Assembly: GCF_001523745.2 (NCBI RefSeq)
Contig: NZ_CP013386.1
Span: 3,658,001 to 3,722,000, forward strand
DNA from: Burkholderia mayonis
GTDB taxonomy: Bacteria > Pseudomonadota > Gammaproteobacteria > Burkholderiales > Burkholderiaceae
Reading direction: 5' to 3'
Length of the DNA: 64,000 bases
Below, one piece after another: positions 4,798 to 59,105 of this stretch; the stretch's first letter is position 1, and every line of letters begins with the position of its first letter. The notes under the pieces are model-generated. The model worked only from the letters and a program-made list of their open reading frames with translations, was not told the DNA's origin and ran no database searches. The translations under genes and the position numbers were made by a program.

Positions 4798-5242
4798 CTT
4801 CGCTCTGCCGACCGATCCGGCACACGGCCGGCTACCCGGCTACCGGCTGCATCCGTCATGCAGCGGCCCGGCGGCCGCCGCGCGCGTCGCAAGAAAGTTC
4901 GACGCTCAAAGTAAAAAAATGCGTCCGCCGCCGCCCGCATTGACATCTGCTTCCCCCGGCCGGACGGCGGAACGTCGATTGAATGGGCGTATGCGCCTGC
5001 ATGTTGGTTTGTTGTGGTGTTTGGCCCCGTCGTGCATGCAGACAACCGCTGCCGACACGCTGAACGCGTGCCGGCAACGCTACCCCCGCGCTGTTTTTAT
5101 CGTTCCCCGTAGCGCATTTTCTTTTTCCTACTCGGTGAAAGGAGAATAGATTTGGCCCAACGGCGTGTCAATCGCCGGAACGCACTTCACTCGTCAACCT
5201 CGGTCAAAACTTGGGTTAATCCCTATTCGTTCGGGTTCCCGA
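4798..5242. other. Intergenic region between convergent genes; one unexplained strong SD
   Basis: About 445 bases between the plus-strand transporter cluster and the minus-strand TraB/GumN gene. Parts are less GC-rich (5090-5220). A very good Shine-Dalgarno (AAAGGAG, 5138-5144) stands seven bases before a TTG at 5152, opening an 81-codon frame that then runs antisense through the end of the next gene. The peptide matches nothing I recognise and is arginine-rich after the overlap, so I do not call a gene. Confidence 0.4.
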
Positions 5243-56499: not shown

Positions 56500-56526
56500 A
56501 AAAAACCCCGGTCTCGACCGGGGTTT
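56500..56526 (-). terminator. Intrinsic terminator, probably the original metK terminator
   Basis: AAACCCCGGT and ACCGGGGTTT form a perfect stem with a four-base loop. On the minus strand the stem is followed by six T, so it serves minus-strand transcripts. The only such upstream gene is metK, now separated from it by the insertion sequence. Confidence 0.82.
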
Positions 56527-56547
56527 AATGAGATGGTCAGCCTGACC

Positions 56548-56585
56548 GAAACAGCCCGATCGGCTTACGCTGATCGGGCTGTTTC
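56548..56585 (+). terminator. Perfect 14-bp hairpin at the left end of the IS
   Basis: GAAACAGCCCGATC (56548-56561) pairs with GATCGGGCTGTTTC (56572-56585) around a ten-base loop. It lies between the left inverted repeat and the transposase gene. It resembles hairpins that block outside transcripts from entering a transposase gene; it could also have a role at the DNA or RNA level in recombination. Confidence 0.65.
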
Positions 56586-56601
56586 CTTATGGGAGATCGT
56601 C

Positions 56602-57627
56602 ATGGACACCATCTCGTTGATCGGAATCGATCTTGGCAAGCATTGCTTTCACCTGCACGCACAGTCCGCATCGGGCCGCATGGTGTTCCGCAAGAAGCTG
56701 ACGCGCAGCCAAATGTTCACGCTGCTTGCCAATGTGCCGAGTTGTACCGTGGTCATGGAAGCGTGTGCTGGGGCTCACTGGGTCGCCCGGCGCATCCAAG
56801 AACTCGGGCACCACGCGAAGTTGATCTCCCCGCAGTTCGTCAAACCTTTCGTGCAAGGCAACAAGAACGACTTCGCCGATGCACAGGCGATCTGCGAAGC
56901 GGCATCGCGCCCGAGCATGCGGTTCGTCAGTCCGCGCAACGAGGTGCAACAGACGATCTCGGCGCTGCATCGCGTACGTGAAGCGCTGGTGCGCGACCGT
57001 ACTGGCACTGTCAACCAGATTCATGCCTTTCTGCTGGAATTTGGGGTCAGCCTGCCCAAGGGGATGGCCGTCATTCGTCGGCTTCCAGCCGTGCTGGCCA
57101 CACACGCTCTGCCGCCGCGGCTAGTTGAATTGCTCGAGCGTCTGCAAGCGCATTTCAAGTACCTCGATGAACAGATCACGCAGATCGAAAGCGAGCTGAT
57201 ACGGCAGCTGCGGGAGGACGAACGCAGCCAACGCCTGTTGGAGATTCCCGGCATCGGTCCAATCACGGCCAGCGTGTTGGCAACTGAATTGGGCGACGCC
57301 CATCAGTTCGCTTGCGCTCGCCAGTTTGCGGCATCCATCGGGCTGGTTCCACGCCAATACAGTACCGGCGGCAAGGCAACGCTGCTGGGAATCAGCAAGC
57401 GCGGCGATAAGCATTTAAGGCGACTCCTGGTGCAGTGCGCGCGAGTTCTCATGCTGCACATCGAGCGGCGCACCGATCGCCTGGGCGCCTGGGTCCGCGA
57501 CCTGCTGGCCCGACGGCATTCCAACGTGGTGGCTTGTGCGTTGGCCAACAAATTGGCGAGGATCGCCTGGGCCATCCTCGCCAGCGGAACACACTACCAA
57601 GGTGGTCAGGTTGTGGCAGCAGCCTGA
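56602..57627 (+). CDS. IS110-family transposase (DEDD/Tnp20)
   Basis: A 341-residue recombinase. The N-terminal RuvC-like DEDD domain has Asp10 in LIGIDLGKH, Glu53 in VVMEACAGAHW and the Asp pair in KNDFADAQ (90 and 93). The C-terminal Transposase_20 domain contains EIPGIGPITASVLATELGD and GLVPRQYSTGGKATLLGISK, with the family serine in YSTGG. The start follows GGGAG at 56591-56595. Full length, no frameshift, so probably active. Its base use is visibly less GC-biased than neighbouring genes. Confidence 0.95.
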   Translation: MDTISLIGIDLGKHCFHLHAQSASGRMVFRKKLTRSQMFTLLANVPSCTVVMEACAGAHWVARRIQELGHHAKLISPQFVKPFVQGNKNDFADAQAICEAASRPSMRFVSPRNEVQQTISALHRVREALVRDRTGTVNQIHAFLLEFGVSLPKGMAVIRRLPAVLATHALPPRLVELLERLQAHFKYLDEQITQIESELIRQLREDERSQRLLEIPGIGPITASVLATELGDAHQFACARQFAASIGLVPRQYSTGGKATLLGISKRGDKHLRRLLVQCARVLMLHIERRTDRLGAWVRDLLARRHSNVVACALANKLARIAWAILASGTHYQGGQVVAAA

Positions 57628-57876
57628 CACGGTGCGCCGCCTCCGTTACCCTTTTTACCCAGTCATTTCCTGGTTTTGCGACGCGAGATACGTGAAGACA
57701 TAAACGGCTCAACGGCCGGGCAAGCAACCTGGTAAAACAAACAGCGCTCTGATGCTGCGGGTTTTTTGAGGTTTGCCCGGCGCGGCTCTCATCATGGGGC
57801 GGGAACCTGTTCCCACAACGACCCCGGATAGATTTGCGCATGCCCAATTTACGTCAACACCGCCTCGCTTGCAAAA
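57628..57876 (+). ncRNA. Candidate bridge RNA in the IS 3' non-coding end
   Basis: IS110-family elements make a structured non-coding RNA that guides donor and target choice, and in IS1111-like members it is encoded after the transposase. This 249-base segment has no reading frame and can fold: GCCGGGCAA (57715-57723) pairs with TTGCCCGGC (57773-57781), enclosing CAGC/GCTG at 57742-57757. GGGAAC/GTTCCC (57801-57814) forms another hairpin. Exact RNA ends and loops cannot be set by eye. The role follows from family knowledge plus visible structure. Confidence 0.6.
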
Positions 57877-57917
57877 GTCAGGCTGACCATAGATTGTTTG
57901 CTACGGCGAACCGTGCG

Positions 57918-59105
57918 TCAGGCGACTTGCACGGCCGGCTCGACGCCAGCCGCTTCGGCGAGCACGAGCGCCTTGTCGGCGGCTTCCCACGAGAATTCCG
58001 GCTCTTCGCGGCCGAAGTGGCCGTAGGCGGCGGTCTTCTCGTAGATCGGACGCAGCAGGTCGAGCATCTGGATGATGCCCTTCGGACGCAGGTCGAAGTG
58101 CTCGCGGACGAGCTTCGTGATCGTCTCGTCAGACACGCGGCCGGTGCCGAACGTATTGACCATCACCGAGGTCGGCTCGGCGACGCCGATCGCGTACGAC
58201 ACCTGGATCAGCGCGCGCGACGCGAGGCCCGCGGCAACGATGTTCTTCGCAACGTAGCGGCCCGCGTAAGCAGCCGAGCGGTCGACCTTCGACGGATCCT
58301 TGCCCGAGAACGCACCGCCGCCGTGCGGGGCCGCGCCGCCGTACGTGTCGACGATGATCTTGCGGCCGGTCAGCCCGCAGTCGCCTTGCGGGCCACCGAT
58401 CACGAAGCGGCCGGTCGGGTTCACGAGGAACTTGATGTCGCCCTTGATCAGGTCGGCGGGCAGCGTCGGCTTGATGACCTCTTCGATCACCGCTTCACGC
58501 AGCGCGGGCAGTTCGATGTCCGGCGCGTGCTGCGTCGACAGCACGACGGTGTCGATCGAATGCGGCTTGCCGTCGACGTAGCGGACCGTCACCTGCGACT
58601 TCGCGTCCGGACGCAGCCACGGCAGGCGGCCGTCGCGGCGCAGGTTCGCCTGGCGCTCGACGAGGCGGTGCGACAGGTGGATCGGCAGCGGCATCAGCTC
58701 GGGCGTTTCGTCGCACGCGTAGCCGAACATCAGGCCCTGGTCGCCTGCGCCCTGATCGAGGTTGTTGTCGTGCGCACGGTCGACGCCTTGTGCGATGTCC
58801 GGCGATTGCTTGTCGTACGCGACGAGCACCGCGCAGCCCCGGTAGTCGATGCCGTAATCGGTGTTGTCGTAGCCGATACGCTTGATCGTGTCGCGGGCGA
58901 TCTGGATGTAGTCGATGTTCGCCGTCGTCGTGATTTCACCGGCCAGAACGACGAGGCCCGTGTTGCACAGCGTTTCGGCTGCGACACGGGAATACTTGTC
59001 TTGCGCGAGGATTGCGTCGAGGATCGCGTCGGAGATTTGGTCTGCGACCTTGTCCGGATGGCCTTCGGAAACGGATTCGGACGTAAAGAGATAATCGTTT
59101 GCCAC
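57918..59105 (-). CDS. metK: S-adenosylmethionine synthetase MetK
   Basis: A 395-residue cytoplasmic enzyme joining methionine and ATP to make S-adenosylmethionine. [20 protein letters not shown] starts the protein, [16 protein letters not shown] is the P-loop-like signature, and [19 protein letters not shown] is the second. Start codon is GTG at 59105 with CAGGAG upstream. The gene ends only 27 bases from the IS, and its probable terminator lies on the far side of that element. Confidence 0.97.

What the first reader, a model, noticed from the sequence alone, without database searches (positions are those of the whole stretch)
57628..57876. Putative bridge RNA of a complete IS1111-like element
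The element has intact DEDD transposase, perfect 14-bp inverted repeats and about 250 non-coding bases after the gene that can form nested stems. IS110-family elements are known to use a bridge RNA to choose donor and target, so this segment is a testable guide RNA. Reading its loops against the two junctions (target left ending ...TTTAATGAG and right starting AGATTGTTTG) could reveal its target rule.
Basis: partly seen in the sequence, partly recalled or inferred. Interest (0 to 1): 0.72.

Follow-up and report, generated by a model that had tools for sequence, protein, structure and literature searches.

The report
Guide RNA steering inserts into terminators
This stretch very probably encodes the guide RNA of a jumping gene in a Burkholderia genome, and comparison with dozens of relatives suggests that the guide steers the element into the stop signals at the ends of host genes.

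Summary
The segment is real: 57628-57876 is exactly the non-coding gap between the stop of an intact IS1111-group transposase and a perfect 14-bp subterminal repeat. It very probably encodes a bridge/seek RNA. A covariance model built from relatives of at most 70% transposase identity finds it at 57668-57846 (136.7 bits, sole hit in the window). The consensus structure has 17 of 30 pairs with compensatory change. All four guide arms covary with the DNA they should read: over 41 distinct guides at 69 sites the left target guide matches its own flank at 4.68 of 5 positions (1.77 when swapped), the right at 6.60 of 8 (4.42).

All three copies in this genome sit in terminator-like sites, as do 21 of 26 tested sites at 75% or higher identity. 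More distant relatives carry other guides and often sit at matching non-terminator sites.

The RNA class is known (2024); a terminator-targeting clade was not found in my searches. No expression data exist here, copy 3 fits the right guide poorly, and the best-matching terminators (rRNA operons) are vacant.

The parts
56526..57893 (+). Complete IS1111-group element (7-bp left extension TAATGAG to 3-bp right extension AGA)
   Evidence: Three nearly identical copies share exactly this span; extensions conserved in relatives
56533..56546 (+). Left subterminal inverted repeat, 14 bp
   Evidence: Perfect match to the right repeat
56548..56585 (+). Left-end hairpin, 17-bp stem, terminator-like; function untested
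   Evidence: Fold -33.2 kcal/mol for the leader; resembles host terminators in other Burkholderia
56602..57627 (+). DEDD transposase/recombinase gene, 341 aa
   Evidence: Pfam and NCBIfam; PDB sequence matches IS621 and ISCro4
57668..57846 (+). Modelled bridge/seek RNA core (target loop and donor loop)
   Evidence: Covariance model from 23 relatives, 136.7 bits, only hit in the window
57733..57740 (+). Right target guide TAAAACAA (reads top strand right of the junction)
   Evidence: Register fixed across 72 parsed sites; 6.60 of 8 vs 4.42 swapped over 41 guides
57759..57763 (+). Left target guide GGGTT (reads bottom strand left of the junction)
   Evidence: 5 of 5 at all three copies; 4.68 of 5 vs 1.77 swapped over 41 guides
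57787..57792 (+). Donor guide for the element's left end (TCTCAT)
   Evidence: Covaries with the left extension
57828..57834 (+). Donor guide for the element's right end plus core (ATAGATT)
   Evidence: Covaries with right end and core, 4.57 of 5 vs 3.00 swapped
57869..57874 (+). Predicted -35 (TTGCAA) of a promoter completed only at the circle joint (GA of 57892-57893 plus TAAT of 56526-56529)
   Evidence: Same arrangement in 44 of 51 distinct elements
57877..57890 (+). Right subterminal inverted repeat, 14 bp
   Evidence: Perfect match to the left repeat
56503..56525 (.). Host bidirectional terminator stem interrupted at its T-tract (left target flank)
   Evidence: Terminator scan on the minus strand; stem score; empty site in a relative
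57894..57901 (+). Right target flank TTGTTTGC
   Evidence: Continues the T-tract in the empty site of a relative
57918..59105 (-). metK (S-adenosylmethionine synthetase), now separated from its terminator stem by the element
   Evidence: Pfam S-AdoMet_synt N, M and C

Best explanation
The segment encodes a bridge (seek) RNA for the adjacent DEDD recombinase. A target loop carries a right guide (TAAAACAA), a small hairpin and a left guide (GGGTT). Together they read both strands of GGGTT-TT-GTTTTA, which is the 3' arm and T-tract of an intrinsic terminator. A donor loop (TCTCAT and ATAGATT) reads the element's own joined ends. Transcription probably starts from a promoter completed only when the ends are joined in a circle; the recombinase then inserts the circle at the core TT, inside the T-tract. 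Shown here by sequence comparison: the anatomy, covariation of the structure and of all four guides, and terminator-like insertion sites. Inferred from published work on IS621 and other IS1111 elements: transcription, circle formation, RNA-protein binding and catalysis.
For: Covariance model from relatives of 70% or lower identity finds 57668-57846, 136.7 bits. 17 of 30 consensus pairs with compensatory change; controls. Left target guide 4.68 of 5 vs 1.77 swapped and right 6.60 of 8 vs 4.42, 0 of 5000 permutations each, 41 guides at 69 sites; per-position signal at -5 to -1 and +3 to +8. Donor guides 4.57 of 5 vs 3.00 and 2.29 of 3 vs 1.66. Terminator-like sites: 3 of 3 in this genome, 21 of 26 at 75% or higher identity, against 14 of 18230 sampled window positions. 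Circle-joint promoter in 44 of 51 elements, at 0 of 69 integrated left junctions. Right-guide-then-left-guide order is the one reported for IS1111 (PMC11187229).
Against: Copy 3's right flank matches the right guide at only 4 of 8 (5 with a slip); copies 1 and 2 at 6 of 8. The five nearest matches to the predicted 13-mer (one mismatch), four of them rRNA-operon-type terminators, are vacant; up to two mismatches the 13-mer has 40 places against 44 for its reversed control. 5 of 26 close-relative sites are not terminator-like, and a stricter stem cut passes only 9 of 26. Single-sequence fold not significant. Elements L213 and L216 have right ends that do not match their donor guide. A first right-donor-guide test, in a wrong register, was negative. 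Permutations do not correct for relatedness, and the register was first seen on part of the same data.
Confidence: 0.88

Rival explanations
1. The recombinase recognises the terminator's hairpin shape, and the RNA plays no part in choosing the target.
For: All three copies and 21 of 26 close-relative sites have a stem just left of the junction. Hairpin-forming targets (REP, attC) are known in the group (PMC11187229).
Against: Relatives at sites without a stem carry guides for those sites, e.g. L118, L205, L213; guide and flank covary among close relatives too, 4.61 of 5 vs 3.07 swapped.
Confidence: 0.06
2. The guide-like segments are flank DNA picked up by the element, not functional guides.
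For: Guide segments vary much faster than the scaffold: 18 of 22 pairs with 90% or more scaffold identity differ at 30% or more of guide positions.
Against: The two segments have opposite strand sense and fixed places in a covarying scaffold, and one guide serves several different sites of a multi-copy element, e.g. the GGGCT guide in G011 and G043.
Confidence: 0.02
3. Insertion is loosely targeted and only copies behind genes survive, so terminators are over-represented by selection.
For: Terminators lie where insertion does little harm; established reasoning, not tested.
Against: The junction falls at a fixed place in the T-tract with a fixed orientation, and 69 of 69 kept sites have TT at the core; survival does not predict base-by-base guide matches.
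Confidence: 0.04

Closest known systems
IS1111-group elements with seekRNA: ISEc11, ISKpn4, ISPst6, ISPa11 (PMC11187229; abstract, sections 4, 8, 9, 13, part of 5, and passages seen)
   Same: Downstream non-coding region, subterminal repeats, 7/3-bp extensions, top-strand complement 5' of bottom-strand match, natural retargeting also reported there
   Different: Targets there are a short linear site, attC and REP. The donor-end pairing found here was not described in the parts I saw. No terminator target in those parts
Bridge RNAs of IS110/IS621 (PMC11208160, section 12 and passages; PMC11208158, passages)
   Same: Target loop and donor loop, four guides, core included in the pairings
   Different: Order of guides reversed and RNA downstream of the gene here; IS621 targets REP; the word 'terminator' does not occur in the main text of either paper
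IS1111 of Coxiella burnetii (PMC2104537, passages)
   Same: Described there as inserting at a chromosomal stem-loop recognition site
   Different: That stem-loop is not called a transcription terminator in the passages seen
ISPpu9 of Pseudomonas putida (PMC8450116, abstract and passages)
   Same: Structured 5' leader of tnp and a sense small RNA downstream of tnp
   Different: REP target; the leader there hides the ribosome site, whereas the leader hairpin here is untested

Membership tests
IS1111 group (IS110 family) | DEDD transposase with C-terminal Transposase_20 domain | tested here: met
IS1111 group (IS110 family) | Subterminal inverted repeats, usually 11-13 bp | tested here: met
   14 bp, perfect
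IS1111 group (IS110 family) | Asymmetric terminal extensions, 7 bp left and 3 bp right | tested here: met
   TAATGAG and AGA shared by three copies; TAATNNN at 69 of 73 and AGA at 67 of 73 sites
IS1111 group (IS110 family) | Longer non-coding region downstream of tnp | tested here: met
   249 nt at 57628-57876
IS1111 group (IS110 family) | No target duplication | tested here: inconclusive
   Empty sites in one relative differ by one T less and one T more
IS1111 group (IS110 family) | Circular intermediate | not testable with these tools
   Only a promoter across the joined ends is predicted
Bridge/seek RNA | Conserved structured RNA with target and donor loops | tested here: met
Bridge/seek RNA | Segments complementary to both target strands, top-strand complement first in IS1111 | tested here: met
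Bridge/seek RNA | Donor guides matching the element's ends and core | tested here: met
   (exceptions L213, L216; right donor guide 10 of 24 combinations exact)
Bridge/seek RNA | RNA is transcribed, binds the transposase and is needed for movement | not testable with these tools
   No RNA-seq or assay available

The most novel reading that the evidence does not exclude
A clade of IS1111 elements in Burkholderia and relatives has specialised on intrinsic terminators as a common, low-harm landing pad and carries its own strong terminator-like hairpin at the left end. Each insertion splits a host terminator and supplies a replacement, insulating host and element. The hairpin of this element resembles host terminators and may have been captured. 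The guides change much faster than the RNA scaffold, which would let the elements follow terminator sequence from host to host.
Probability: 0.35. Interest if true: 0.7.

Novelty: new member of a known kind. Interest (0 to 1): 0.55.

Why it matters
It gives natural covariation for all four guides of an IS1111 bridge RNA and a per-position target rule (5 left bases, core TT, about 6 right bases). It also points to a landing class, intrinsic terminators, that genomes hold in number. If true, it would explain how such elements spread with little damage, and it is directly testable. The matched guide-target pairs (41 guides, 69 sites) are a ready data set for asking how guides are retargeted in nature.

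Tried and rejected
The single-sequence fold is not significant (z -1.19 and -1.67), so it is not used as evidence. Rfam at gathering scores gave only BTH_s1 in the window, no bridge-RNA family. A first test of the donor guide for the left end used a wrong register and a loose parse and was negative (0.74 of 3 vs 0.86 swapped, 4469 of 5000 as high, 35 rows). The corrected register gave 2.29 vs 1.66 (24 combinations), which still included L062 (misparsed) and L177, L202, L209 (altered left ends). Two distant rows (L227, L232) were also misparsed in the other donor test and were left in. A first guide pattern parsed only 12 sites and was replaced. A stem cut at the random 99% level gave 9 of 26 and 5 of 39 sites. 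The criterion of the final count (stem score 19 or more and 5 or more T in 8) was set after seeing those scores and gives 21 of 26 and 11 of 39. The link between a strong left hairpin and terminator targeting (17 vs 28 left ends, median 33 vs 18, P 0.0018; below 75% identity P 0.036; T-tail P 0.038 and 0.082) is not corrected for relatedness and supports only the novel case.

Rows dropped: L062 (no guide parse; 72 of 73 sites parsed); L177, L202, L209 (left extension altered); L046, L135, L195, L050 (short left flank) before the terminator counts, leaving 65 of 69 sites; L048 (left end cut off); L180 (anchor not found) from the 41 guides, leaving 40 sequences in alignment A1. Some kept sites are near-duplicates (e.g. 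L173/L174, L190/L193, L045/L046); guides, not sites, were the unit of the permutation. An empty site for copy 2 was sought and not found.

Print: searches listed no paper that I recognised as describing IS110/IS1111 insertion in transcription terminators. One search listed 20 of 36 papers, and I opened passages of only a few. Subscription papers, preprints and supplements were not searchable.

Full report
What is there. The window holds a complete IS1111-group element at 56526-57893. The protein hits DEDD_Tnp_IS110 and Transposase_20, NCBIfam 'IS110 family RNA-guided transposase', and the IS621 and ISCro4 chains in the PDB. Two more nearly identical copies lie elsewhere in the genome.

The junctions. 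All three copies share TAATGAG before the left repeat and AGA after the right one. Of 73 distinct sites at 60% or more identity, 69 have TAATNNN and 67 have AGA. This fits the 7-bp and 3-bp extensions known for the group (PMC11187229 introduction). The real flanks are GACCGGGGTT|TTGTTTGC (metK), ACGCGGGGTT|TTGTCTTC and CGAGGGGGTT|TTTCGTTT. In each, the left flank ends in the 3' arm of a GC-rich stem and the right flank continues a T-tract. A relative without the element (G017) has ACCGGGGTTTTTGTTTGCC at the metK site and GAGGGGGTTTTCGTTT at the site of copy 3, each within one T of the joined flanks; none was found for copy 2. In the window the element lies between metK and its terminator stem. 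An element 77% identical in DNA lies next to metK in another Burkholderia (G010), in the opposite orientation and beside a similar stem.

The data set. Searches of 65 genus genomes, 398 family genomes and the species-representative contigs (65 loci), with stretches fetched, gave 189 loci with a transposase match. Of these, 137 had recognisable ends, at 93 distinct sites. Of 73 sites at 60% or more identity, 72 gave a parse of the RNA's target loop.

The RNA. An alignment of 40 distinct sequences gives a consensus of 30 pairs, 17 with changes on both sides that keep the pair. 96.7% of cells pair. Sliding the partner strand by 1-3 columns drops this to 29.2-40.5% and the covariation score from 0.369 to 0.039-0.077; none of 500 shuffles reached the observed values. 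A covariance model built from 23 of the sequences, none above 70% transposase identity to the window, finds one place in the 64-kb window: 57668-57846, 136.7 bits. By itself the segment's fold is not remarkable.

The target guides. Between CCTGN and the inner hairpin there are ten bases at 70 of 72 parsed sites (9 and 11 at the other two), read as eight of right guide and two of spacer. After the hairpin and one base come five of left guide. After dropping three sites with altered left ends, 41 distinct guides at 69 sites remain. The left guide matches its own flank at 4.68 of 5 positions; with guides and sites swapped it is 1.77 (sd 0.17). The right guide matches at 6.60 of 8, swapped 4.42 (sd 0.16), allowing a slip of one T; without the slip 5.75 against 4.07. 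None of 5000 permutations reached any of these. The result holds among the 11 guides at 79% or more identity and the 30 below (0 of 3000 each). By position, signal is strong at -5 to -1 (z 7.8-10.2) and clear from +3 to +8 (z 3.4-6.2); +1 and +2 are TT at all 69 sites. The register was first seen on 30 elements, so the test is not fully independent of its discovery, and relatedness is not corrected; the size of the effect makes neither a likely explanation. For this element the left guide fits all three copies (5 of 5), the right guide 6, 6 and 4 of 8 (5 with a slip for copy 3).

The donor guides. Most elements ending CATAGA carry ATAGATT in the RNA. Those ending CATACA carry ATACATT, those ending CATGTA with core TG or CG carry ATGTATG or ATGTACG where parsed, and those ending CATATA carry ATATAAG or ATATACG, with one mismatch (L064). 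L213 and L216, with right ends GGA and AGT, do not fit. Over 37 combinations the match is 4.57 of 5 against 3.00 swapped, 0 of 5000. The guide for the left end follows the left extension: TAATGAG with TCT, TAATGAA with TTT, CAATGGG with TCC, TAATGGA with TTC in L229 but TTT in L214. It matches at 2.29 of 3 against 1.66 over 24 combinations, 0 of 10000, after a first test in the wrong register was negative. Joining the ends would place TTGCAA 17 nt before GATAAT. A promoter of this kind spans the joint in 44 of 51 distinct elements and is at none of 69 integrated left junctions.

Terminators as the target. With a stem score of 19 or more and at least 5 T in 8, 21 of 26 sites at 75% or more identity are terminator-like, against 11 of 39 at lower identity. 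The same test passes 14 of 18230 window positions sampled on both strands, and 14 of 126 T-rich ones. A stricter stem cut alone gives 9 of 26 and 5 of 39. The 26 sites include this genome's three, and some are near-duplicates. Relatives at other sites carry guides for those sites: L118 AAGGTTAA for TTAACCTT, L213 AGAGTAAA for TTTACTCT, L205 CAAGCAAA for TTTGCTTG. The choice therefore follows the guide; terminators are what this clade's guides name. In this genome the nearest matches to GGGTTTTGTTTTA are five places with one mismatch. Four of them correspond to L236, L238, L244 and L250, which share one terminator sequence; it lies downstream of 5S rRNA in the two tested (L236, L244). All five are vacant, which is unexplained. 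Up to two mismatches the pattern has 40 places, its reversed control 44. The shorter GGGGTTTTG has 20 places (control 10), 8 of them terminator-like.

The left-end hairpin. The element carries a 17-bp stem at 56548-56585, before the transposase. Strong stems with T-rich tails occur in most terminator-targeting relatives, and weaker ones in many others (17 vs 28 left ends, median score 33 against 18, P 0.0018, uncorrected for relatedness). Its sequence resembles host terminators found in other Burkholderia. It may replace the terminator that insertion splits, or hide the transposase leader as reported for ISPpu9 (PMC8450116, abstract and passages). This was not decided.

Known and new. Guide RNAs of this group, their downstream place and their order were reported in 2024 (PMC11187229; PMC11208160). 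Every group feature that sequence can test is met except target duplication, which is uncertain by one base. What I did not find in print, within the searches named in Tried and rejected, is a clade that targets intrinsic terminators; IS1111 of Coxiella is described as inserting at a chromosomal stem-loop (PMC2104537 passages). Transcription, binding and movement were not tested.

Noticed in passing
window 4912-5119: Burkholderia sRNA BTH_s1 (RF02690), minus strand, 215.3 bits.
   Followed up: no
G040:C80:59538-59591: A 54-bp stretch identical to the left end of the element; no long match to the rest of the element was listed at that place; a remnant or small derivative.
   Followed up: no
L051 and L053 (Achromobacter sp. 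Marseille-Q4962): Two shortened elements (1216 and 1162 bp) share one guide and intact ends and sit at sites whose left flanks match it; they may have been moved by a recombinase supplied from elsewhere.
   Followed up: no
L236, L238, L244, L250: The rRNA-operon-type terminators are the best matches to this element's guide in its genome, yet all are vacant.
   Followed up: partly
L103 (G010), beside metK: A 77%-identical relative lies beside metK in opposite orientation, so the same kind of site may have been hit independently.
   Followed up: partly
Alignment A1, guide positions: Guides change quickly while the scaffold stays: 18 of 22 pairs with 90% or more scaffold identity differ at 30% or more of guide positions. 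How guides change is unknown.
   Followed up: partly
L007/L003 (copy 3): Copy 3 differs from the window copy by one base in the RNA's inner hairpin and by at least one transposase residue.
   Followed up: no
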